From an uncultured Geobacteraceae bacterium (GTDB taxonomy: Bacteria > Desulfobacterota > Desulfuromonadia > Geobacterales > Pseudopelobacteraceae), in NCBI GenBank assembly GCA_903875605.1, contig CAIQWT010000087.1, forward strand, positions 1 to 64,000: a stretch of DNA of 64,000 nucleotides. The letters are read 5' to 3'. Each line of letters begins with the position of its first letter. Positions within the stretch are counted from its first letter, which is position 1. Positions 1,277 through 54,870 of this stretch are shown piece by piece. Position numbers and translations under genes: made by a program. The notes beneath the pieces are model-generated. The model saw only the letters and a program-made list of their open reading frames with translations. It had not been told where the DNA came from and did not search any database.

Positions 1277-2742
1277 CAGCGAATAGCAGAGTACAGCTTA
1301 TCCGCATCCCCTTCCACAACCCGGATTCCTTCACGTTCCAGAAGTTCACCGGTAACACGCCAGTAGTTTGTCATGGCATTGGCATATTCCACTACCGCCT
1401 TGATTTGATTACTTTTCGAAACAGCAAGATCATTCTCAACATCCAGAACATCTTTAGTAGTCGCCAAACCAACCTCATTTTTTCGCATAAAAGCTCTCAG
1501 GCGCTCTTCGGCAAAGGCCTTACCTCTGTCAGCAACCTCAATCTGCTTGTATCCAGTAACTATACCTCTAATTGCAGCTCTAACCTCGTTTGTAGAGCTT
1601 TCTTCAAGACTACGCAATTGCAGTGAGATCTGCTCTGCTTTAAGCTTACTTCTGCGATAATCGTTTTCAGCAGCGCCATTTCCTAGCGGATAACTAAAAT
1701 TGAGACCAATACTCCAGACCGGGTAATCAAGAGTAAGTACTTTGTCCATATTTCGTTGATAGGCTTTATCAAGGCCTGTTAACTGGGCAGATGCGATCAA
1801 GGTCAAGTCGGGGCGGTTTTTTTGGCTCAAGTTTCTGGCCTGAAGATCATTCAACTCCAGATTGCGTTTTTGCTCCCGTATATCAGGACGGTTAAGAGCC
1901 TTTTGAATGGCCACACTCTCGATTGCATCAAACTTTTCACGCGACGGTAAATCGGATGTCTGTATATCACCAGCTTTAGCATCCATCTGCAGGAGCAGAC
2001 GCAAAACATCTACCTGGTCACTCACTGAGCGTTCCGTGTCGATTAGCTCTTTTTCGCGGGTAACTGCACCGAATTCAGCATTAAGAACTTCCATCGCTGG
2101 AAGCACACCAGCTTTTACACGCGCCTGGGTGTCAGAAAGAATCTTTCTGGCAAGTTCTAACGACACCTTTTTGACATCACGTTCTTCTCGCAGGCTATGA
2201 AGCTTATAATATTCAGTGCGTACCTTTGCAACGGTAGAAAGTAGAATTGTATTAAAATGTTCTAGAGATGCAAATTTAGAGGAACGGGATATATTAATAG
2301 AAAACTCAGTTGCCTCACGCCCCACATTTTTTAACAGGGGTTGACTGATACTTACGCCTAAACCGGTTTGCCAGTTTGTTGAAGGCGTGTCCGTATGCAT
2401 ATTGTTAAATTTAACTTCAGCCTTGCCTCCAGTCCATAAAAGTTGGCTTACTGAAGGATTGAGTGTCAATGTATGACCTGATGAGCTTGACGAAAATCCT
2501 GTGACAGCATCAGAATCGGTATACGCTGTTTGAAGCGAAAAAACAGGGTCGTAAATTGCACGATCTCGCTTAATATCAGCCTCAAACTGAGCAGCGGTGT
2601 AAAGCTCTGCCCTTACGTCAAGATTTTTCTCGACGGCCATGCGAATCGCCTCATTTAACTTTAACTCAACTGGAGTATCAAATGAAAATGCCGAGAACGG
2701 CAGAACAAGCATCGAAAGAGATAATAATATCGGTATGCGCAC
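1276..2742 (-). CDS. TolC-family outer membrane efflux channel
   Basis: 488 residues. An N-terminal signal peptide (hydrophobic ILLSLSMLVLPFSAFS) is followed by the two repeated coiled-coil halves of OEP/TolC proteins. Typical phrases are KLNEAIRMAVEKNLDV near residue 28 and NRPDIREQKRNLELNDLQARN near residue 290. It should form a trimeric outer-membrane and periplasmic tunnel used with an inner-membrane pump. No pump or membrane-fusion protein gene is adjacent, so its partner must be elsewhere. The start is GTG at 2742, with AAAGGAAC about 8 bases upstream. It sits downstream of the gcvH terminator and is followed by mqnA with a one-base overlap. Confidence 0.85.
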   Translation of the reverse strand: MRIPILLSLSMLVLPFSAFSFDTPVELKLNEAIRMAVEKNLDVRAELYTAAQFEADIKRDRAIYDPVFSLQTAYTDSDAVTGFSSSSSGHTLTLNPSVSQLLWTGGKAEVKFNNMHTDTPSTNWQTGLGVSISQPLLKNVGREATEFSINISRSSKFASLEHFNTILLSTVAKVRTEYYKLHSLREERDVKKVSLELARKILSDTQARVKAGVLPAMEVLNAEFGAVTREKELIDTERSVSDQVDVLRLLLQMDAKAGDIQTSDLPSREKFDAIESVAIQKALNRPDIREQKRNLELNDLQARNLSQKNRPDLTLIASAQLTGLDKAYQRNMDKVLTLDYPVWSIGLNFSYPLGNGAAENDYRRSKLKAEQISLQLRSLEESSTNEVRAAIRGIVTGYKQIEVADRGKAFAEERLRAFMRKNEVGLATTKDVLDVENDLAVSKSNQIKAVVEYANAMTNYWRVTGELLEREGIRVVEGDADKLYSAIR

Positions 2743-2765
2743 GTATGGTTCCTTTCAAATAAAAC

Positions 2766-2794
2766 AGGGCGAGATCAATTCATGACCCCGCCCT
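2766..2794 (-). terminator. Rho-independent terminator after gcvH
   Basis: Read on the minus strand, AGGGCGGGGTCA and TGATCTCGCCCT form a 12-pair stem with two G-U pairs and a five-base loop, followed by GTTTTATTT. It lies between gcvH and the TolC-type gene and should end the aroC-to-gcvH transcript. Confidence 0.75.
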
Positions 2795-2817
2795 TATATC
2801 ATATTTTATGTAAGATT

Positions 2818-3204
2818 TTAATCCCTGTTTTCAATATAATCGACATAATCATCGGCTGAAAGAAGATTTTTAAGTTCTTCAGGATCATCAAGCGATATTT
2901 CAACTAACCAGGCACCGTCGTAAGGGTCATCGTTTAGAAGCTCGGGGTTATCCAGTACTTCATGATTAATACTCCGCACGGTTCCGGTGAATGGAGCATA
3001 AATGGAAGCAACCGTTTTATGGGCTTCAACTGAGCCCACGGAATCGTCCTGTTCTACTTCATCACCTTCATCAGGCAACTCCACGCCCCTAATTGTACCC
3101 AACTCCTCCTGGGCAAAGTCCGTAATACCTATCACAGCCGAACCGTTTTCAATTCGTACCCAAATATGTTCTTTAGAATATTTCAGTTCATCGGGAAAAT
3201 CCAT
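2818..3204 (-). CDS. gcvH: Glycine cleavage system H protein (lipoyl carrier)
   Basis: 128 residues, full length for GcvH. The lipoylated lysine is K63 in VEAHKTVASIYAP; it keeps the usual spacing to the IYAP turn, although the common ESVKA has become EAHKT. GcvH carries the aminomethyl group between the P, T and L proteins of glycine cleavage and in some organisms is also a lipoyl donor. GGAG lies 8 bases before the ATG. It starts 5 bases after accC, so it is co-transcribed with the biotin carboxylase genes. No gcvT or gcvP is in the window, so a role as a lipoate relay or a second H protein is possible. Confidence 0.88.
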   Translation of the reverse strand: MDFPDELKYSKEHIWVRIENGSAVIGITDFAQEELGTIRGVELPDEGDEVEQDDSVGSVEAHKTVASIYAPFTGTVRSINHEVLDNPELLNDDPYDGAWLVEISLDDPEELKNLLSADDYVDYIENRD

Positions 3205-3209
3205 AGCAT

Positions 3210-4550
3210 TTACTCCAGCACAATTCGTTCAAGGAAAGAGGTGTCAATATCGCCTTCGATAAAGTCTTTATGGGCCATAATGCGCTTATGAAAGAAGATT
3301 GTAGTCTTAATTCCTTCAATCCGGAATTCGTCAAGTGCACGTGCCATCCGCTTGATAGCTTCCTCACGGGTGTCAGCGTGAACAATTAGTTTTCCGATCA
3401 GTGAATCGTAATTAGGTACTACAGAGTACTGATCGTACACAAAAGAATCAACTCGAACTCCAAATCCTCCAGGAGGATGATATGCCGTTATTTTACCAGG
3501 ACAAGGGGTGAATTTAAAAGGATCTTCTGCATTTATTCGGCACTCTATCGCGTGCCCCCTGAACTTTATATCTTCCTGCTTGAAGCGCAATGGTATACCG
3601 GCAGCTGAGCGAATTTGCTCCCTAACCAGGTCCACTCCGGTAATCATCTCAGTTACCGGATGCTCAACCTGAATCCGGGTGTTCATTTCCATGAAGTAAA
3701 AATTATTTTGCTTATCGACAAGAAACTCAACCGTACCGGCACTGTTGTACCCGACTGCAGCAGCAGCCCGAACGGCTGCATCCCCCATAGCCTTACGAAT
3801 TTCAGGCGTAACAACCGTTGATGGTGCCTCTTCAATCAGCTTTTGGTGACGGCGCTGAATTGAACAATCTCTTTCACCGAGGTGAATAACATTGCCATGC
3901 TTATCACCTAAAATCTGAATTTCGACGTGGCGCGGCTTTTCACAGTAGCGTTCAATATAAACTTCAGGGTTGCCGAATCCGGACTGGGCTTCTGCACGAG
4001 CCGTTGCAAAAGCATTCGGCAGGGCAGCCTGGGAATGAACAATTTTCATTCCGCGTCCACCACCTCCTGCCGTTGCCTTAATTATTACCGGAAAACCAAT
4101 TTCCTTGGCGACTTTAACAGCATCTTCAACCGTTTTTACACCCTCTTTAGTGCCGGGTAAAATCGGTACTCCCTGCTTGATAACCGCCTGACGGGCGCTG
4201 ATCTTGTCGCCCATTATACGCATACTTTCAGCAGTTGGACCGATAAAAGTAATGCCGCATTTTTCACACACTTCGGCAAATTTAGCGTTTTCAGATAAAA
4301 ATCCATAACCTGGATGGATCGCCTCGGCATCAGTTAATTCAGCTGCACTGATTATCGCATTTATATTCAGATAGCTTTGGGCACTGGGAGCAGGCCCTAT
4401 ACAGACGCTCTCGTCAGCCAGTTTTACATGAAGAGAGTGAACATCAGCCTGAGAATAGACAGCCACAGTCTTAATGCCCAGCTCCTTACAAGCCCTTATG
4501 ATTCTGACGGCAATCTCACCGCGATTGGCAATTAGTACTTTATGAAACAT
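3210..4550 (-). CDS. accC: Biotin carboxylase subunit of acetyl-CoA carboxylase
   Basis: 446 residues, as expected for AccC. It starts [20 protein letters not shown] and has the ATP-grasp glycine-rich loop [12 protein letters not shown]. Other family motifs are [22 protein letters not shown] and [13 protein letters not shown]. It carboxylates biotin carried on AccB using ATP and bicarbonate, the first step of fatty acid synthesis. It follows accB by 105 bases and precedes gcvH by 5. The carboxyltransferase genes (accA, accD) are not in the window. Pyruvate carboxylase subunit A is a close relative, but the adjacent AccB-type carrier supports AccC. Confidence 0.93.
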
Positions 4551-4655: not shown

Positions 4656-5138
4656 TTACAGTTTCTGAATAACAAACAGAGCATCCCCGAATTCAACAGC
4701 TTGAGCGTTGTCCTTGCACACAGATAAAATCTTGCACTTGCACTCGGCCTCAATCTCGTTCATCAATTTCATTGCCTCTACAATACAGAGCACCTGCCCT
4801 TTTTCAACGACCTGACCAACGGTAACGTAAGGTGCTGCTTCAGGACCTGGAGCTTCGTAAAAGGTGCCAACAATTGGGGAGTTGAGTGTATCGCCAACTT
4901 CAGCTGCCTGAGCAGGAGACGCAGCCGGAGCAGAAGCAATGGCAACAGGAGCGGCTGCCGGGGCAGCCTGATAACCGGGGTGAGCGTACTGCTGGGCTGC
5001 AGGTGCAGCAAGCGTAATATATTCCGGTTTATGGCCGCGTTTGATAATAATTTTTTCGTCTGAATTATCCATTTCAAACTCGGTAATATCTGTTTCAGTA
5101 ACAAGCTTAATCAATAGTTTCAGGTCTTTAATATCCAT
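4656..5138 (-). CDS. accB: Biotin carboxyl carrier protein of acetyl-CoA carboxylase
   Basis: 160 residues. There is an N-terminal domain (MDIKDLKLLIKLVTETDITEFEM), an Ala/Pro-rich flexible linker at about residues 44-80, and a C-terminal biotinyl domain with the attachment lysine K124 in EAMKLMNEIEAE. The usual thumb residues (SPIVGTFYEAP) are present, which marks it as the fatty acid synthesis carrier. It carries carboxybiotin between AccC and the carboxyltransferase. It lies 121 bases downstream of the pepP-like gene. The elongation factor P gene often found between these two in related genomes is not here. Confidence 0.92.
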   Translation of the reverse strand: MDIKDLKLLIKLVTETDITEFEMDNSDEKIIIKRGHKPEYITLAAPAAQQYAHPGYQAAPAAAPVAIASAPAASPAQAAEVGDTLNSPIVGTFYEAPGPEAAPYVTVGQVVEKGQVLCIVEAMKLMNEIEAECKCKILSVCKDNAQAVEFGDALFVIQKL

Positions 5139-5259
5139 TTCGGTTCATCTCCTTTTACATTCAGTTTTGATAGTATTTTATTTATACATTTTAAAGGTCG
5201 GTGATTGTCATATATTTACAATAACCGGATACAAGGTACTACTTAATTTATTCGTAATT

Positions 5260-9300: not shown

Positions 9301-9412
9301 GTAGGAAACCCCTTCAAACGGCACAGAATCGATGCCGCGACATCTTCTACGGAATTCCTATCCGTGTCAATTTAATATCGGCGTCGGTATAAATTTGTTC
9401 ATGTTTCTTCAT
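9297..9412 (-). pseudogene. aroK: Remnant of shikimate kinase (aroK), frameshifted
   Basis: The minus-strand translation from 9412 reads MKKHEQIYTDADIK. After a one-base shift near 9371 it continues IDTDRNSVEDVAASILCRL and then KGFPT and a stop at 9297. Together this matches the shikimate kinase C-terminus, Y..ADI.IDTD..S.E.VA..IL. An upstream stop (TAA at about 9419) and the missing nucleotide-binding domain show that only the last third or less survives. It sits exactly where aroK is found between aroC and aroB in related operons, and its old stop still overlaps the aroB start. An active shikimate kinase must be elsewhere. Confidence 0.75.
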
Positions 9413-9436
9413 CCGGACTTACAGAATCAACTGACG

Positions 9437-10597
9437 TCAGGCGTTTCTAACCTGTTCCATATATCCTTTTATGTTGCGCCGAATTTCAAATATAGAATCG
9501 CCGCCAAACTTTTCAAGGAAAGCATTCGCAATTTCAATAGCGACTACAGCTTCCGCGACAACCAGCGCTGCTGGCACAGCACAGGTATCAGAACGTTCAA
9601 CTGTAGCCTCAAAAGCTTCGTGCGTAAGCATATCAACCGAACGAAGGGGTGAGTACAACGTGGGAATCGGTTTCATGGCGGCCCTCACGACAACCGGTTC
9701 ACCATTTGACATTCCACCTTCTATACCACCGGCGTTATTACTGTTGCGATGATAGCCATCTTTATAGAAAATTTCATCATGCACACGTGAGCCTGGCCTA
9801 CGGGCCGCATCAAAGCCGATTCCGACTTCAACCCCTTTAATGGCCTGTACGCTCATCAGTGCCATGGCTAAACGGGCATCAAGCTTACGATCCCACTGTA
9901 CATAGCTTCCTAAGCCTGGTGGAACACCAACAACCTGCACTTCAACAACTCCGCCCAAAGTATCTCCACCTGACTGGGCAGCGTCTATAACCCGCTTCAT
10001 ATCGATCTCTGCCAAAGGATCACAGCAAAACGTTTCTGATTCTGCTGCCCTCTGCCAAAGGATTTCCAGCTGTTCCTGCGGAGTGCACGCACTAATACCA
10101 CCCAATTCCACGACATAACCACCGACTCTGATATCGAATTCAGCCAGTAGCGACTTTGCTATGGCACCAACAGCAACCCGCACGGCAGTTTCTCTGGCAC
10201 TGGAACGCTCCAAGACATTACGCACATCGCTATGGTGATATTTCAACGAACCCGACAAATCTGCATGACCAGGACGCGGGCGGGTCACGGCACCTGAGTC
10301 ATCGCGATGTTCCGGGAGTGTCGACATCTTATCTGACCAGTTTTCCCAGTCACGGTTTATTACAACAATTGTGACAGGAGCACCGATTGTCTCTCCCCAG
10401 CGGACACCGGAAAGCAGTTGAGCGGTATCCTTCTCTATTTTCATCCGGTCACCGCGACCATATCCCTCCTGCCGACGTGAAAGATCATGATTCAGCGTTT
10501 CCACAGATATATGCATCCCGGCAGGAAGACCTTCTACAATGGCAGTCAACTGAGGTCCGTGCGACTCACCAGCCGTCAGGTATCTAAATATGCTCAC
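9437..10597 (-). CDS. aroC: Chorismate synthase
   Basis: 386 residues from the GTG at 10597. Family motifs are [67 protein letters not shown] and an SDTCAVPAA near the end. It makes chorismate from EPSP using reduced FMN. The frame is open to 10621, but TGGAGG lies just before the GTG and the homologous N-terminus begins there. The gene heads the run aroC-(aroK remnant)-aroB-TPR-Roadblock-aroQ. Confidence 0.95.
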
Positions 10598-49132: not shown

Positions 49133-49591
49133 ATGGGCGAAAAACTGATTTGTAATAATAAGAAAGCTTATCACGATTATTTTATAGAAGAAAAGTTCGA
49201 AGCTGGTCTGGTACTGCAGGGGACTGAAGTAAAGTCACTGCGGGCCGGAATGGCAAACTTGAATGATTCGTTCATGCTGGTACGTGACGGTGAGGCATTT
49301 TTACACAACCTGAACATTTCCCAGTATGAATTCGGCAACCGGCAAAATCACCAGACGGATCGCAATCGCAAACTGCTGCTGCATAGACGGGAGATTGACC
49401 GCCTGTTTAGTAGAATACGAGAAAAAGGGCTATCGGTCATCCCGCTGCGTCTTTATTTTAAAGACGGCCTGGTCAAGGTTGAGATAGGGCTTGCTAAAGG
49501 TAAAAAGCTGTACGACAAACGGGAGGATATGAAAACAAAGGACAGCCAGCGTGAGATGGCGCAGGCACTGAAGGCCAGAAACAGGGATTGA
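49133..49591 (+). CDS. smpB: SsrA-binding protein SmpB
   Basis: 152 residues. CNNKKAYHDYFIEEKFEAGLVLQGTEVKSLRAG and the basic tail (KLYDKREDMKTKDSQREMAQALKARNRD) are diagnostic. SmpB carries tmRNA into stalled ribosomes. Its RNA partner ssrA is 3 kb downstream on the same strand, separated by decayed mobile DNA. The ATG follows GAGGGC closely. Confidence 0.96.
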   Translation: MGEKLICNNKKAYHDYFIEEKFEAGLVLQGTEVKSLRAGMANLNDSFMLVRDGEAFLHNLNISQYEFGNRQNHQTDRNRKLLLHRREIDRLFSRIREKGLSVIPLRLYFKDGLVKVEIGLAKGKKLYDKREDMKTKDSQREMAQALKARNRD

Positions 49592-49621
49592 AAGCCTGCA
49601 CTGCATTAGTCCTGAGAGCAA

Positions 49622-50181
49622 TCAAATAAGAATTAACTTTTTACGTTTTGTGACCACCTCAACAATTTTATCAACTGTAGCGTTGCTGCCATACACCGAA
49701 TCAAATTCCTTCAGAGCCACCTTGAGTGCCAAATCAATGTCACGTTGCATAATAGCGTTCGTCCTGGCAACCAGCTTGATATTGATATCAAGAAAATCGG
49801 CCATCGTTTTCCTGTCATCTCTAGTGATTTGTTCGGTATTAAATTGTCGTCCGATAGACATGGCAACATCATTATCATGGCTATCCCCATATACAGTCGT
49901 TGAGAGAATGTCATAGAAAGGGGCTAGCCAGATTCCGGTCTGGCTCAAAAGCATTGACAGATTCTTTGCGTGAGCGTCGGCGTTGCCAATAAGGACATTG
50001 AACGACACCCACTTTAGCAACTGATCGAGATCATCCGTAATGTCGGAACTGTGCTCCCGTATCTTCTGCACACAAAGCTCAAGACTAGGACCACCTTGCT
50101 CTGATACTTAACGCACGGATCCACCCTCAACAACTGACAAAAATCTTCCTGAAGTATCCTTTTCAACTTATCACAAACGAA
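49622..50181 (-). pseudogene. HipA-like kinase, C-terminal fragment with frameshift
   Basis: The intact part (149 codons from GTG 50071) has NVLIGNADAHAKNLSML and LAPFYDILSTTVY, the catalytic and DFG-like region of HipA. Upstream it continues in frame as SEQGGPSLELC, hits a TAA at about 50108, and the preceding match (KRILQEDFCQLLRVDPCVKYQS) is in another frame. So one frameshift separates the parts, and the N-terminal domain and hipB are gone. Intact HipA phosphorylates glutamyl-tRNA synthetase; this copy should be inactive. Confidence 0.8.
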
Positions 50182-50483
50182 CCAAAAGTCCTATTTACGC
50201 TGAGCCAAAACAGAACCTTATCAAAGGGAAAGATGGATATAGTCATCTTTTCGGGAAATTGTTCCAGCGCCACAACAGGAATCATATCACTGCTAACCCT
50301 AAAAGTTGCTTCCACTCATTTCATCACACTCTAGCGGACTCCCTTAAACAACTGGAATGCAATGAGACCGTGATTGTTGAGATTTTAGGGCATCGAAATG
50401 AATCCATAACGACCGGCAGATATGGGAAAAGGTACCATCCGAGAATATTACTCGATGCTCTCCGACTGCTAAATTATTCATAA
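50172..50483 (+). pseudogene. Tyrosine recombinase (integrase), C-terminal fragment
   Basis: The translation reads GKDGYSHLFGKLFQRHNRNHI, then FHSFHHTLADSLKQ and ILGHRNESITTGRYGKRY, ending LLDALRLLNYS. This is the catalytic C-terminus of a phage-type integrase with the box II histidine, GH and the nucleophile tyrosine. The essential arginine of HxxR is histidine (HSFHHT). There is no N-terminal half and no start codon before 50259, so it is a dead fragment that abuts the hipA remnant. Confidence 0.75.
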
Positions 50484-50825
50484 TTATAGTCTTCAGTTAT
50501 GACATCAATGGACTAATGTATTTTTACTGATGGTAATATCACTTTCGCACCTATTCAAATTACTGCCGCTAAAGTTCAAAATCACCACCTAACTCCCCAC
50601 TATCAGCATATTGAACTTAAATAGTGCTTACCATTCTAGTTCTTCCCACTATCTATTACGCTGGTTTTGTAGCAGGTGTGGTTCAATATTGGGTATGGAT
50701 TTATATTTTGTAAAGAAAGTAAAACGTCCTAGAATTTCCATCATTTTATATTTTTGTGTTCTTAATTCCTGAATGCCTAAATATTGGGCATTTCAATATA
50801 TAGTATAGAGTTATACAGAGTAATT
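50484..50825. other. AT-rich gap without a gene
   Basis: I see no convincing reading frame on either strand. A small inverted repeat (AATGCC at 50772 and GGCATT at 50787) lies 35 bases past the stop of the PAS gene and may act in its 3' end, but it has no T tract. Confidence 0.5.
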
Positions 50826-51395
50826 TTATTTCATACCCTTTATCTCAGCCATAGCTTCATCGAAGCAACATTTACATAAACCATGAGTTAGTTGAGGTAC
50901 GCGTTCATTATCAAAGATCTTCAGTGTATTTATCGCTACATCAGTTTCTTCCCACTCAGTTTCTGAGACGGCAATCTTTTTACATACACTACATATTCGG
51001 ATCAGTTTGTCAGATCGCTCGACATCATTATTGAGTAACGCTACTATTTCCCTAGATTCTGTTCTGAGAATTTGGCTTTGAAACTCAATGGTATCGTCTT
51101 CTAGTGGTATAACAGATAGTTGAAGATAGCGGCAGATGCTTGGAGAGTCACATCTAAATAGTAATTTAACCGATTGCTTTCTACTTCGTACTTCCTTTAG
51201 TACTATTTGATACAGGTGTTTAGTTTCATCCCCACTAATGAAGTCCCACAATGAAGAGCCAATAATTTTATCTGGAGTATTGCTCTCAGCACCATTATTC
51301 TCGACAGCAAACGAAAGCCAGTTATCACTCAAACTAATGATATTGTTGTCTTTGTTTACTAAGTAGATGTAGGTTTCATCGGTATTAACATTCAT
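50826..51395 (-). CDS. PAS-like sensor protein with C-terminal cysteine motif
   Basis: 189 residues. The N-terminal part (about 1-115) looks like a PAS fold (YIYLVNKDNNIISLSDNWLSFA, GSSLWDFISGDETKHLY). The C-terminus has CSVCKK and, 35 residues on, THGLCKCC. This CxxC...HGxCxxC pattern follows PAS or receiver domains in other sensors and probably binds a metal. No output domain is present. It is AT-rich relative to neighbours, consistent with transfer. The ligand and role are unknown. Confidence 0.65.
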   Translation of the reverse strand: MNVNTDETYIYLVNKDNNIISLSDNWLSFAVENNGAESNTPDKIIGSSLWDFISGDETKHLYQIVLKEVRSRKQSVKLLFRCDSPSICRYLQLSVIPLEDDTIEFQSQILRTESREIVALLNNDVERSDKLIRICSVCKKIAVSETEWEETDVAINTLKIFDNERVPQLTHGLCKCCFDEAMAEIKGMK

Positions 51396-51560
51396 GTTAT
51401 TCCTTATGGGATTTCAGCTATTTTAGTAATACATTACTCACCTGACAGACTTGCTCACATAGTCGATGAATAACTTCAGAGCATTTTCTGTCACATCCTC
51501 AATCTGGTTATAGACTCGACCTTTTACTGTAAATGATATGGTGAATGGAGCATTGTTATG

Positions 51561-52004
51561 CTATTCCCACTTGTCTTTAACTTTAGCAGTAGCCTTCGTC
51601 TGCCACTGCATATTACTAGGATCATCTTTTCCACCACGTTTAAGAGGCACAATATGGTCAACTACATATCCTGGACGACCGTTTGGATAGCCTGATTGCT
51701 TCATAAAATCATGCTTGGGGGCGGAACTTCTTTTGATTTTTCCTTTGGAATCTCTCTGTACTCCGTAAGAAGCTTTTGAAAAACCTTGTTTATGTGTTTT
51801 AGTGGAATAGCTTCTACTGGTGGGGCTTTTCGGAGAGTAACTACTTGATGAATGACTGATGGATGAATGACCACTACTGGCCTTGTGTCCTCCTCCACGT
51901 GCTGAGGAGATATCAGGTGACATTGTTACTGCAAACATCAGAAGGCAACAGAGCATGACATTATGAACAGATTCCAAAGGTGTCACTCCTAGATGGGGCG
52001 TCAC
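51561..52004 (-). CDS. Putative exported HNH-type endonuclease
   Basis: 147 residues. A hydrophobic segment (MLCCLLMFAVTMSPD, about 17-31) is followed by a long Ser/His-rich stretch (about 36-70). The C-terminus (about 105-145) has YVVDHIVPLKRGGKDDPSNMQWQT, an HNH-like fold with DH, GG and N. Similar short exported HNH proteins occur widely; targets are unknown. The start could be later, at one of the methionines before the hydrophobic segment. In-frame coding-like sequence continues for 40 codons after its amber stop. Confidence 0.65.
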   Translation of the reverse strand: MTPHLGVTPLESVHNVMLCCLLMFAVTMSPDISSARGGGHKASSGHSSISHSSSSYSPKSPTSRSYSTKTHKQGFSKASYGVQRDSKGKIKRSSAPKHDFMKQSGYPNGRPGYVVDHIVPLKRGGKDDPSNMQWQTKATAKVKDKWE

Positions 52005-52049
52005 TACTTTTAAAAATAATCTACTTCCGCCACAGTCACGGTGGTAATA

Positions 52050-52178
52050 TTACATCTTAGGCTTCCAAATTAGCCGTACAAGCTGTTCTTTTCGTTGGCG
52101 AACAACAGATGTAGCATCATCATAATATCCCTTTTGAATTAATAGTCCATTATTTATTTTATCTTGAGTTATGGGCAG
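52050..52178 (-). pseudogene. Gene remnant, 42 codons, family not recognised
   Basis: The minus strand reads ITQDKINNGLLIQKGYYDDA, then TSVVRQRKEQLVRLIWKPKM and a stop. Composition and charge pattern look protein-coding, but a stop precedes it and there is no ATG, GTG or TTG start. I read it as the 3' end of a lost gene. Confidence 0.4.
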
Positions 52179-52304
52179 TTAGGGTCACTGGAATCGTTTA
52201 ACCCTCCCAGTAATGATAATGACACAGCAGGTAGCGGCGGGGGGAGTAACTATATACAACCCTCAGGCTTTAATCCCTCAGGTCGACTGCTCAGCTTTCT
52301 GGAC

Positions 52305-52384
52305 TTATTTAACAAACAGTGCCGGTAAATCAATTTCATAATCCAGCTTGCTCAGGTGTTCCAGTTGCCGTTTTTTTCTAACAA
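52305..52384 (-). pseudogene. Possible second integrase C-terminal tail
   Basis: The minus strand reads RKKRQLEHLSKLDYEIDLPA, then LFVK and a stop. LDYxIDLxxL is a common end of tyrosine recombinases, and the neighbouring fragment ends VDYGI, so this may be a second tail in another frame. The match is short. Confidence 0.35.
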
Positions 52385-52510
52385 TTAAATTCCGTAGTCC
52401 ACCTTCTTCATCACCTCAAGCAGCACCTCTGCCTTGAACCTCTTGCCGTATATGGACATGGTTATGGAGTCACTGGAATGACCAAATAGTTTACCGATAA
52501 TCTCAGCCCG
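52385..52510 (-). pseudogene. Tyrosine recombinase C-terminal fragment, minus strand
   Basis: 41 codons translate as RAEIIGKLFGHSSDSITMSI, then YGKRFKAEVLLEVMKKVDYG. It contains the GH box and the nucleophile tyrosine (SIYGKR). An in-frame TAA lies two codons upstream, and nothing of the N-terminal part is seen. It ends 122 bases before ssrA. Confidence 0.7.
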
Positions 52511-52554
52511 TCTTTAAGGCCTGTATCACTTGCTCAATTTGAAACCGAATTAGG

Positions 52555-52583
52555 TTGCGACTACAATTGATAACAGTTATTAT
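52555..52583 (+). promoter_or_regulatory. Probable sigma-70 promoter of ssrA
   Basis: TTGCGA (52555-52560) and TATTAT (52578-52583) are 17 bases apart. Transcription would start near 52590, giving a precursor about 40 bases longer than mature tmRNA at its 5' end. Confidence 0.5.
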
Positions 52584-52631
52584 AAGTACACACATAAGTA
52601 ACCAAATTTAAAAATAGGCACGATTACAAAT

Positions 52632-53035
52632 GGGGGTGTAAAGGTTTCGACAGGCGAAGATAGATTCTGATTGCGCTGGGAGGATAGTGGTTGGCCTCTA
52701 GAATAATCCACTAAACAATGAATGCAAACAATACAACTGCTGCAGACAATTACGCCTTTGCAGGTGCAATAGCTGCTTAGTACCAGCCTTGGAATCTTCG
52801 GACTCCAAGCGAGCTAGAGGGTAGACTTAACTCCCCGTGTAACCCTTCGGCTGTCAAAAAGAAGTAATTGTAATGGGACGGTGAGGATGGTCCGATAGTC
52901 ACTGTATTTAGGAATCGGTTTTGGGTGCCGTGAGTGATGGCTTACCCTGAGCTTAAAACCATAGTCAATCTATCAGCGTAGACGTTAGCATCGAAGAGCG
53001 TTTGGACGTGGGTTCGACTCCCACCACCTCCACCA
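52632..53035 (+). ncRNA. ssrA: Transfer-messenger RNA
   Basis: About 404 bases. The 5' end GGGGGTG pairs with CACCTCC at 53025-53031, followed by A and an encoded CCA, forming the acceptor stem. The 3' T-arm GGGTTCGACTCCCA is clear. The tag reading frame starts at GCA 52724 and encodes ANNTTAADNYAFAGAIAA, then TAG at 52778. tmRNA with SmpB rescues stalled ribosomes and tags their products for proteolysis. The 18-residue tag is longer than the 10-residue E. coli tag. Confidence 0.96.
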
Positions 53036-53072
53036 TTATTGTCCTTTTAGTCGATTTTATAGCGCTTCAGCA

Positions 53073-53600
53073 ATGTGGCGCTATTTTATTATCTACAAAA
53101 ACGGGTCTTTATTTCCATGGGTATGCACTTTGCAAAACACTAAAACCACTATTACAGCAAATAATTGGCGTCTATCTCATCCTTTAGCGTTTGAGCAACA
53201 TCGAACAACTGCGATGTTTTTGAGTGCAGCAATCTTAATCATGTTATGCATACTCGATTACGTCACCGGCTACGAGTTTGGATTCTTCATCTTTTACTTC
53301 ATTCCTGTTTCCATAGCAGCTTGGTACGGAGGAGAAAAAGAAGGTATGACTATGGCCGTTACTTGCGGAATTTGTTGGTATATTACCGACAGGCTTTCAC
53401 ACCACCCCTACTCACGCTCTTACTTCATATACTGGGAAACATTTATGCGTCTTGCATCTTTCCTTACCACCTCTTTGACACTTTCCAAAATCAGGGCAAT
53501 GGTTCTGAAAGAGGAGAACCTTATTTTGGAACTGCTTGAAACTAAAGAGGAATTAAATCAGTTGCGACAATCGAATCATGTTGACTGTTCTCACGACTAA
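53073..53600 (+). CDS. Small membrane protein with sensor-like transmembrane domain
   Basis: Up to 175 residues. Hydrophobic helices start near residue 48 (MFLSAAILIMLCILDYVTGY, FGFFIFYFIPVSIAAWYGG, GMTMAVTCGICWYITD, FMRLASFLTTSLTLSK). A short coiled coil ends it (EENLILELLETKEELNQLRQ). FYFIPVSIAAWYGG recalls the membrane part of some histidine kinases and GGDEF proteins, but no output domain follows. The first 45 residues have no homology I recognise and the ATG has no ribosome site; ATG 53214 may be the start. It lies just after ssrA. Confidence 0.6.
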   Translation: MWRYFIIYKNGSLFPWVCTLQNTKTTITANNWRLSHPLAFEQHRTTAMFLSAAILIMLCILDYVTGYEFGFFIFYFIPVSIAAWYGGEKEGMTMAVTCGICWYITDRLSHHPYSRSYFIYWETFMRLASFLTTSLTLSKIRAMVLKEENLILELLETKEELNQLRQSNHVDCSHD

Positions 53601-53658
53601 TAATTTTGAGAGCAGTAAATTAGAACATTTTTAACACAAATAACGGAGACGATTGAGT

Positions 53659-54870
53659 ATGACATTGCGGAACCTTATCGACTCCAACCGCCGCGAGTAT
53701 GGGCGCCTGTATGACTTGTTGAATTTTGCCGGCCCTGAACAAATAGCAACAGCAAACGACGAGAGAAATGAACTGCTGCAGTGGCTGGATAAACACGCCC
53801 GTTTCGGCTATGCCGATACCAAAGTCGATTGCAATGAACTTTCTCCAGGTTGCCGCCGCTGCGGCGATGGCGACTGGTCATGCCTGTTCATCAACGGTCA
53901 TTGCAACGGTCGTTGTTTTTACTGCCCCACGTCGCAAGATGATAACGGGCCACCGGTTACCAACGGCCTTGCATTCTCGGGTCCTGACGACTACGCCGCC
54001 TATGTGGCCGCTCTCGGTTTCAGCGGTGTCAGCATCAGCGGAGGTGAGCCATTGCTGACTCTGGAACTGACTCTGTCGTATCTGAGCGCCGTTCGCAAAC
54101 GGTGCGGTAATGATGTCCATCTCTGGCTATATACCAACGGCACCCTGCTGACAACGGATATCTGTAACCGCCTGCGGGATGCCGGTCTGAATGAAATACG
54201 TTTTGACATAGGAGCAGTCCGCTATCATTTGAAAAAATTACGCCTTGCAGTGGGCATAATTCCGACTGTCACTGTTGAAATCCCGGCGGTGCCGGAGGAT
54301 GAGGAACTATTAAAACTGAAGATGGTTGAAATGGCAGAAGCTGGAGTTAATCATCTCAATCTGCACCAGATGCGTCTGACACCGTACAACTTTGGCCCGT
54401 TAACTGAACGCGGCTATACTTTCATCCATGGCGAAAAAGTCACTGTACTGGAATCAGAGCTCTGTGCCCTGCGGTCTGTTCGTTTCGCGCTGGAACATGG
54501 CATTAGGCTCCCGGTGAACTACTGCTCTTTTCCGTACAAACGACGCTTTCAGCATGCAGCAGCCAGGCGGCGTGCAGCCCAGACGGTCTGCGCTTCCGGA
54601 GAAGTTGTGACAGAACCTGGATACCTGAGGACTCTTTCGACAACAGGGGTAAGCTACCATGAAGCGGCGATCCTGCAGAATCCAAGTTACCGTTTTCCCT
54701 TTGAAAAAATCGTGTTGGAGACCGGACGGGCCCTGTACCTGGAACGCCGACCGCTGGCTCCGGAAATAGAGTTATCAGTCGCTGAGCTTGTTTCTCTGAC
54801 AGAGGGCCATCCTCCGGAGCGAATCGCTAGATTTGAGCGGATTGAGAGTGGGTTAGCCGGGTATTTCTGA
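53659..54870 (+). CDS. Radical SAM protein with additional N-terminal cysteines
   Basis: About 403 residues. The SAM cluster motif is C82-x3-C86-x2-C89 (HCNGRCFYC), with SISGGEPLL as the SAM-binding loop. Four more cysteines come before it (C58, C65, C68, C75 in DCNELSPGCRRCGDGDWSC) and could hold a second cluster or zinc. It could be a modifying enzyme, but the substrate is unknown. CGGAGAC lies upstream; TTG 53653 is an alternative start. The next gene, a transporter operon, may or may not be linked. Confidence 0.82.
   Translation: MTLRNLIDSNRREYGRLYDLLNFAGPEQIATANDERNELLQWLDKHARFGYADTKVDCNELSPGCRRCGDGDWSCLFINGHCNGRCFYCPTSQDDNGPPVTNGLAFSGPDDYAAYVAALGFSGVSISGGEPLLTLELTLSYLSAVRKRCGNDVHLWLYTNGTLLTTDICNRLRDAGLNEIRFDIGAVRYHLKKLRLAVGIIPTVTVEIPAVPEDEELLKLKMVEMAEAGVNHLNLHQMRLTPYNFGPLTERGYTFIHGEKVTVLESELCALRSVRFALEHGIRLPVNYCSFPYKRRFQHAAARRRAAQTVCASGEVVTEPGYLRTLSTTGVSYHEAAILQNPSYRFPFEKIVLETGRALYLERRPLAPEIELSVAELVSLTEGHPPERIARFERIESGLAGYF

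What the first reader, a model, noticed from the sequence alone, without database searches (positions are those of the whole stretch)
49592..52631. smpB and ssrA separated by a graveyard of integrative elements
At least two tyrosine recombinase tails in opposite orientation, a hipA fragment and several scraps lie between the two trans-translation partners. ssrA is a favoured integration site. The fragments suggest repeated insertions followed by deletion, with two small genes kept.
Basis: partly seen in the sequence, partly recalled or inferred. Interest (0 to 1): 0.55.

Follow-up and report, generated by a model that had tools for sequence, protein, structure and literature searches.

The report
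Bacterial rescue-RNA gene swapped by islands
The junk between two partner genes for rescuing stuck ribosomes is a real scar of mobile DNA, and the RNA gene next to it looks like a foreign replacement: related bacteria show likely intermediate steps in which a mobile element adds a second, different copy and the original is then lost.

Summary
Between smpB (49133-49591) and ssrA (52632-53035) lie a truncated hipA, the end of an IS, two oppositely oriented tyrosine-recombinase tails, and two small ORFs (PAS-like, HNH). Of 30 same-genus genomes measured, 16 have 16-90 bp there and 14 have 0.12-1.3 kb.

The larger finding is ssrA itself. The family norm is a ~353-nt tmRNA (type B). The window has a 404-nt tmRNA (type A) about 60% identical to B, while smpB is about 81% identical. 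Types A, B and C are scattered over the genus almost independently of the smpB/glgP tree. Relatives show likely intermediates: two complete, different ssrA genes in tandem (G044, G046; G013 across contigs), in G046 with an integrase between; a resident ssrA cut to about 120 nt (G074) or 23 nt (G041); and clean swaps. I infer that islands bring whole foreign ssrA genes to the resident ssrA 3' end, after which the resident copy is deleted. Island traffic at ssrA and second ssrA alleles are known; stepwise whole-gene takeover did not turn up in my paper searches.

The parts
49133..49591 (+). smpB, intact
   Evidence: Pfam SmpB E 1.3e-62; 88-95% aa identity in the same-genus genomes, apart from one 55% copy in G022
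49619..50169 (-). hipA fragment (C-terminal part), truncated at its 5' side
   Evidence: HipA_C E 7.5e-21; DNA 77-79% to G001:C42 and G013:C126, where the open frame is 415-416 aa
50168..50214 (.). terminal ~45 bp of a repeated insertion sequence, abutting the cut end of hipA
   Evidence: 87-98% identical copies at many places in family genomes; beside a transposase-like start in 5 of 5 copies inspected (IS3-type by eye)
50215..50483 (+). C-terminal tail of a tyrosine recombinase (tail 1); protein similarity starts at 50262, left limit set by the IS end
   Evidence: Phage_integrase E 2.7e-4; 61% to a 428-aa open frame in G004; 44% to the DUF6538 integrase directly downstream of ssrA in G061
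50826..51395 (-). small ORF of 189 aa, weakly PAS-like, apparently intact
   Evidence: PAS_9 E 0.0014, below cut-off; no NCBIfam or PHROG match at E <= 0.01
51561..52004 (-). small HNH endonuclease ORF of 147 aa, apparently intact
   Evidence: HNH E 2.1e-4, 21.8 bits against a cut-off of 21.4; PHROG HNH families; 70% DNA match in G058 and elsewhere in own genome
52376..52515 (-). C-terminal tail of a second tyrosine recombinase (tail 2), opposite orientation
   Evidence: 86% DNA identity over 52376-52475 to G011:C60 integrase locus; frames read
52536..52615 (+). promoter region of ssrA resembling that of type-B relative G050 (TTGCGA-17-TATTAT at 52555-52583)
   Evidence: local alignment score 27 to G050, 0 of 500 dinucleotide shuffles as high; no such match to type-A or type-C upstream modules; of 35 upstream regions compared only G050 stood out; promoter-like sites no more frequent than in shuffles (3 against mean 1.7)
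52632..53035 (+). ssrA, tmRNA type A (foreign type), tag AADNYAFAGAIAA
   Evidence: ARAGORN; RF00023; 60% mean identity to type B of the same genus
53036..53093 (+). hairpin region downstream of ssrA, shared with other type-A loci (G040, G041, G046, G074)
   Evidence: DNA matches of 87-95% covering ssrA and running on to 53093-53115 in those loci; sequences set side by side

Best explanation
Two layers. (1) The 3-kb interval is a decayed set of mobile elements that landed between smpB and the ssrA promoter: an IS entered a recombinase gene, a deletion fused the IS end to hipA, and a second recombinase was cut. (2) The ssrA body is itself a transplant. An integrative element carrying a complete foreign ssrA recombined with the 3' end of the resident ssrA, giving resident ssrA - element - foreign ssrA. 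A later deletion removed the resident body and the element. When it occurs between the near-identical first ~23 nt of the two genes, the resident promoter is left joined to the foreign body, as the window appears to show. Shown by sequence: the mosaic, the three tmRNA types, the tandem states, the truncated residents and the mismatch with the tree. Inferred: the order of events, site-specific integration as the entry step, deletion between the 5' ends, and that any of it is selected.
For: Types: A-A identity 0.93 and B-B 0.945 within the genus, A-B 0.60, with smpB about 0.81 in all three comparisons. Outside the genus 27 of 30 family genomes with a tmRNA have the 351-355-nt length (type B sequence checked directly in 7 outside-genus loci), against 404 in G074 and 394-395 in G108 and G112, so B is likely ancestral. 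Tree: 6 of 9 starred sister pairs in the genus differ in type: G016[A]/G009[B], G013[B+C]/G041[A], G004[B]/G014[C], G012[B]/G002[C], G022[B]/G039[A], G044[B+A]/G045[B]; 15 changes of type on the 44-row tree against a mean of 17.0 when the 34 genus labels are shuffled, 17% of 1000 shuffles as low. Tandem: G046 smpB - complete C - DUF6538 integrase - complete A; G044 complete B and, 24 kb on, complete A; G013 complete B beside smpB, then an integrase 60% identical to that of G046, with C on another contig. Decay: G074 keeps about 120 nt of B before A; G041 keeps exactly the first 23 nt of B after a spacer near-identical to that of its sister G013, then an A upstream module and A. Clean swaps: five compact A loci have B-like spacers (mean score 9.45; shuffled mean 7.3, maximum of 200 shuffles 8.72), unlike the A module (7.03, within its shuffles). 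G017 also joins a B-like promoter to an A body (37 to G045, shuffle maximum 14). Footprint: 2 of 39 acceptor stems are mismatched, both smpB-proximal copies followed by this pair of related integrases. Cross-genus: A of G074 is 0.92 identical to the genus A at smpB 0.75; B of two other-genus relatives is 0.86 identical to genus B at smpB 0.77.
Against: No phage, plasmid or viral contig carrying type A was found, and no excised circle could be looked for. Only three genus genomes carry two of the types. In G013 the second copy is on another contig and the proximal gene was completed by joining two contigs on a 10-nt overlap. In G046 the distal A lacks the 3' base that a single reciprocal crossover would predict. 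The ssrA of G061, also followed by a DUF6538 integrase, has a fully paired acceptor stem, so the mismatch is not general. In G044 no integrase was recognised by motif beside the distal copy. The same-genus records with names (L058-L074) are all MAGs. No trace of a resident ssrA remains in the window interval. The window promoter matches only G050 of five such relatives tested singly. The tree is poorly resolved in places and G000 is unplaced.
Confidence: 0.72

Rival explanations
1. One reading: islands integrated at the ssrA 3' end, decayed, and left the scraps; ssrA itself is the ordinary resident gene.
For: An integrase sits directly downstream of ssrA in G046 and G061 and by motif in G044 and G020. 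Tail 1 is 44% identical to the G061 integrase; a tail-1 relative also adjoins ssrA in G067, and a fragment lies 17 kb downstream of ssrA in G055.
Against: Debris is on the 5' side, no second copy of the 3' end in the genome, and the ssrA is not the family type. Of the 19 other genomes with a tail-1 match, only G055, G061 and G067 show one on the ssrA contig within 20 kb, where ssrA was located.
Confidence: 0.1
2. ssrA types were exchanged by ordinary homologous recombination of incoming DNA, with no island carrying ssrA.
For: Clean swaps with no element left (G006, G015, G016, G039, G051).
Against: Homology of the window locus to other type-A loci starts at or within 11 nt of the ssrA 5' end; tandem two-type loci and truncated residents need an insertion step.
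Confidence: 0.12
3. A, B and C are old paralogues that stood in tandem in the ancestor and were lost differentially.
For: Tandem pairs exist; types are very divergent from each other.
Against: 27 of 30 tmRNA-bearing relatives in other genera have only the B length; three different pairings occur; A is more alike across genera than B is.
Confidence: 0.06
4. Assembly or binning artefacts in metagenome-assembled genomes.
For: The named genus records are MAGs and several contigs end inside ssrA.
Against: Type A occurs full length in 16 of 98 genomes, with smpB on the same contig in 14 of the 15 genus genomes, G010 being the exception; the G013/G041 spacer match crosses the junction.
Confidence: 0.08

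Closest known systems
Genomic islands integrated in the tmRNA gene (tyrosine or serine integrases; e.g. Dehalococcoides ssrA islands, PMC3146451, passages seen; Islander, PMC4383910, abstract start seen)
   Same: Integrase next to ssrA, use of the ssrA 3' end, tandem arrays, decay.
   Different: In those descriptions the island restores the same gene and is bounded by a short repeat of its 3' end; here a whole, very different ssrA comes with or beside the element and the resident body is lost. In the window the debris is upstream of ssrA.
Second or third ssrA alleles and phage-borne ssrA (PMC4131195, section 10 and passages read)
   Same: More than one ssrA per genome; ssrA on mobile DNA.
   Different: The parts read note them without a locus history; here both types lie at the smpB-ssrA locus with intermediates of replacement. 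No phage, plasmid or viral contig with type A was found.
Prophage excision that inactivates tmRNA (E. coli CP4-57, PMC10107115; Shewanella CP4So, PMC5148205; abstracts read)
   Same: A mobile element at ssrA controls whether the host tmRNA works.
   Different: There the element's departure breaks tmRNA; here an element appears to leave a different tmRNA in place.

Membership tests
ssrA-integrated genomic island (window interval) | tyrosine recombinase gene or remnant | tested here: met
   two C-terminal tails
[quoted passage not shown]
   none in window or genome at up to 3 mismatches
ssrA-integrated genomic island (window interval) | island lies 3' of ssrA | tested here: not met
   debris is 5' of ssrA and of its promoter-like region
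ssrA-integrated island carrying a whole ssrA (G046 locus) | integrase plus two complete ssrA genes in one orientation | tested here: met
ssrA-integrated island carrying a whole ssrA (G046 locus) | 3' ends exchanged as one reciprocal crossover predicts | tested here: inconclusive
   proximal copy has the foreign-looking base, distal copy lacks the reciprocal one
ssrA-integrated island carrying a whole ssrA (G046 locus) | excision and circular form | not testable with these tools
   needs reads or PCR
DUF6538 tyrosine recombinase (G046 ORF) | DUF6538 and Phage_integrase domains over Pfam cut-off | tested here: met
   56.9 and 41.7 bits against 27 and 27.1
Functional tmRNA (window ssrA) | covariance model match, tag frame, paired acceptor and T stems | tested here: met
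Functional tmRNA (window ssrA) | expression, alanine charging, tagging activity | not testable with these tools
   needs experiment
Phage- or plasmid-borne tmRNA | same ssrA on a phage or plasmid record | tested here: not met
   no type A in plasmids or viral contigs; phages only a 48-nt 3' end

The most novel reading that the evidence does not exclude
A mobile unit made of integrase, promoter, complete tmRNA gene and terminator (in G046 about 2.3 kb between the two ssrA 3' ends) invades the host tmRNA gene, leaves it with a mismatched acceptor stem (position 6 C against A in both smpB-proximal copies followed by this integrase type), and supplies a substitute tmRNA with a different degradation tag, so that the host comes to depend on the element's RNA: a selfish takeover of a core translation-rescue gene.
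Probability: 0.28. Interest if true: 0.82.

Novelty: new variant of a known kind. Interest (0 to 1): 0.6.

Why it matters
tmRNA is usually treated as a stable, single-copy core gene, and genomic islands as borrowing only its 3' end. If whole ssrA genes are carried and swapped, then the degradation tag and the tmRNA body can change between sister species while SmpB stays the same. This makes it testable how freely tmRNA and SmpB can be mixed, and whether an island can make itself indispensable by replacing a core RNA. It also warns against using ssrA as a vertical marker in this family.

Tried and rejected
Direct repeats of the ssrA 3' end near the window: none (general repeat list). Remnants of tmRNA types A, B, C and three others inside the 3-kb interval by local alignment: every best score was within the range of 30 shuffles. 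Type A in viral contigs, plasmids and phages: no hit, no hit, and only a 48-nt 3' end in two records of one phage; relatives of the G046 integrase in viral contigs: no hit. G036's 134-nt tmRNA match looked like a mini-tmRNA but by eye is an ordinary 3'-end fragment. Two-tmRNA genomes in the class: 7 of 214 genomes with a match (277 searched) had two. The three outside the family hold same-type copies: G079 97% and G090 99% identical with the distal copy lacking the 5' end, and G133 100% with the smpB-proximal copy lacking its last ~10 nt; they are not counted as type swaps. G022's second pair (SmpB 54%) is on a 5.4-kb contig and was set aside as possible contamination or another element. The first multiple alignment had rows in the wrong orientation and only the correctly oriented rows were used. 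Tree caveats: 15 of 44 rows have under half the columns filled, 11 of 41 inner branches are open, and G000 is unplaced within the genus; in the shuffle test genomes with two types were coded by one type, A before C before B. Genus genomes without a usable smpB or ssrA locus (G018, G021, G024, G042, G048, G052) are in no count of types. One partial tmRNA (N070) was left out of the stem count. A prediction that the clean-swap spacers would match the A module was tested and failed, which is why deletion between the 5' ends is preferred; those shuffles keep base composition only.
Full report
What is there. The window is part of a 151-kb contig (C87) of a 3.58-Mb, 109-contig genome; the closest named relatives are MAGs labelled Geobacteraceae, Desulfuromonadaceae, Deltaproteobacteria and the like, followed by Pelotalea and Oryzomonas. 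smpB and a complete tmRNA gene are separated by 3040 bp. In that interval lie, left to right: the C-terminal part of a hipA gene on the minus strand, 77-79% identical in DNA to copies with 415-416-aa open frames elsewhere in two relatives; a 45-bp piece present at many places in family genomes, beside a transposase-like start in 5 of 5 copies inspected, beginning where hipA homology ends; the C-terminal tail of a tyrosine recombinase on the plus strand; a 189-aa weakly PAS-like ORF and a 147-aa HNH ORF on the minus strand; and the tail of a second recombinase on the minus strand, 86% identical in DNA over 100 bp to a locus in G011. The most economical reading of the left half is that an IS entered the first recombinase gene and a deletion then fused the IS end to hipA.

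Relatives. smpB-ssrA spacing could be measured in 30 same-genus genomes: 16-90 bp in 16, and 123-1298 bp in 14. Where it is long the contents differ: a multihaem cytochrome gene in G017 (Pfam; similar by eye in G044), a GGDEF gene in G012, a Fic-like ORF in G020 (named by eye; its 60-aa fragment had no Pfam hit), or only an upstream module of type A (G019, G040, G041, G043). The interval is therefore a recurrent insertion site. [quoted passage not shown] The 80 bp in front of ssrA resemble the promoter region of the type-B relative G050 (score 27, 0 of 500 dinucleotide shuffles as high). Four other relatives with a separated ssrA do not match singly, and the type-A and type-C upstream modules do not match; of 35 upstream regions compared only G050 stood out. 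So the debris lies between smpB and what looks like a resident promoter, and not at the usual ssrA attachment site.

The tmRNA is of a foreign type. A blastn comparison of the window with same-genus relatives found the tmRNA body either 88-96% identical or not alignable except, in most, for its last ~36 nt. Alignment and typing gave three bodies in the genus: A (about 404 nt), B (about 353 nt) and C (395 nt). Mean identity is 0.93 for A-A (210 ordered pairs), 0.945 for B-B (156) and 0.60 for A-B (194 pairs), while smpB stays near 0.81 in all three sets. In the family, 58 of 76 genomes gave a tmRNA at E 1e-20 or better; of the 30 outside the genus 27 have 351-355 nt, one (G074) has 404 and two (G108, G112) have 394-395. 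G074 is type A and the other two are type C; type B was checked by sequence in 7 outside-genus loci and is assumed from length in the rest. B is therefore the likely ancestral type. Full-length A occurs in 16 of 98 genomes searched: 15 of the genus and G074. A is 0.92 identical between G074 and the genus at smpB 0.75, whereas B of two other-genus relatives is 0.86 identical to the genus B at smpB 0.77, as expected if A moved later.

Types do not follow the tree. On a tree of smpB plus glgP (44 rows; 15 rows with under half the columns; G000 itself unplaced) 6 of 9 starred sister pairs in the genus differ in type: G016[A]/G009[B] 100/100, G013[B+C]/G041[A] 100/100, G004[B]/G014[C] 100/100, G012[B]/G002[C] 99/100, G044[B+A]/G045[B] 100/97, G022[B]/G039[A] 98/91; G005/N070, G007/G047 and G019/G040 agree. 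The minimum number of changes on the tree is 15, against a mean of 17.0 when the 34 genus labels are shuffled (17% of 1000 shuffles as low), so type is close to random with respect to the neighbouring genes.

Intermediates. G046 has smpB, 41 bp, a complete type C, a 539-aa DUF6538 tyrosine recombinase, about 140 bp, and a complete type A. G044 has a complete B and, 24 kb further, a complete A, with a 23-nt copy of the 3' end between. G013 has smpB and type B running into a contig end that overlaps by 10 nt a contig starting with the ssrA 3' end and an integrase 60% identical to that of G046; type C is on a third contig. G074 keeps about 120 nt of a B gene in front of its complete A. G041, sister of G013, has the G013 spacer almost unchanged, exactly the first 23 nt of B, then the A upstream module and a complete A. 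G019, G040 and G043 have the A upstream module and no exact match to the B 5' end longer than 6 nt. In G010 type A sits on another contig while smpB is followed by more than 60 kb without an ssrA. Five compact A loci (G006, G015, G016, G039, G051) have spacers resembling those of B loci and not the A module, and G017 has a B-like promoter before its A body. This points to deletion between the near-identical 5' ends of two tandem genes. The window fits that end state: a B-like promoter, an A body, and downstream sequence shared with other A loci to 53093-53115.

Footprint. The T stems of the 39 tmRNAs examined are all paired, and 37 of 39 acceptor stems are. The two exceptions are the smpB-proximal copies in G013 and G046, both followed by the related integrases and both with C6 facing A. 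This fits a 3' end supplied by the element. Against a general rule, G061's ssrA, followed by another DUF6538 integrase, is fully paired, and in G046 the distal gene does not carry the reciprocal base, so a single simple crossover does not explain that locus fully.

Outside the family. In 277 genomes of the class, 214 had a tmRNA at E 1e-14 or better and 7 had two: G013, G022, G044, G046, G079, G090, G133 (stricter filters, so weak copies may be missed). The last three hold same-type copies, one or other of them incomplete, and are not type swaps.

Literature. Islands at ssrA are well known; passages of PMC3146451 describe islands downstream of ssrA bounded by a 20-bp repeat, and the start of the Islander abstract (PMC4383910) was seen in the listing. 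[quoted passage not shown] The abstracts of PMC10107115 and PMC5148205 report that prophage excision inactivates tmRNA. PMC11915505 was seen in passages; none of those shown described replacement. Searches for two-tmRNA, displacement and related phrases listed no title or abstract start that describes stepwise whole-gene replacement; two searches returned nothing. Most listed papers were not opened, and most subscription papers are not in that library. 'Traffic at the tmRNA gene' (Williams 2003) is recalled and was not read.

Verdict. The graveyard is real and, as such, ordinary. The reading that ssrA in this genus is repeatedly replaced by whole foreign tmRNA genes, probably brought by integrative elements, is well supported as a pattern (about 0.72) and less sure as a mechanism. 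It is a new variant of a known kind.

Noticed in passing
G002, G004, G008, G009, G013, G014, G031 and L070: Contigs end inside ssrA in at least eight relatives, as expected if the ssrA end exists in several contexts within the sampled populations (possible active integration or excision).
   Followed up: no
L046 (G022:C401) 2681-4241: A second smpB-ssrA pair on a 5.4-kb contig, SmpB only 54% identical to the window's, with a tmRNA typed apart from A, B and C; contamination or a mobile pair.
   Followed up: no
L222 (G133:C109) 4829-5178 and 9389-9728: Two identical tmRNA copies 4.2 kb apart; the one next to smpB lacks its last ~10 nt and only the distal one is called by ARAGORN.
   Followed up: partly
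L036 (G010:C24) 633-1037: Type-A ssrA on a contig where smpB was not found; smpB is on another contig with more than 60 kb after it and no ssrA, so ssrA seems relocated.
   Followed up: partly
type-A ssrA T-arm, window 53008-53024 and relatives: Three T-stem alleles occur within type A (GTGGG, CAGGG, CCGAG), always with compensating partner strands.
   Followed up: partly
G055:C3 1386949-1387302 and 1404604-1404773: A fragment related to both window recombinase tails lies 17 kb downstream of ssrA in a three-contig genome of another genus.
   Followed up: no
window 53073-53600: Small DUF4118-like ORF (below the Pfam cut-off) directly after ssrA, before a radical SAM gene (53653-54870); a homologue of the latter also follows ssrA in G049.
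   Followed up: no
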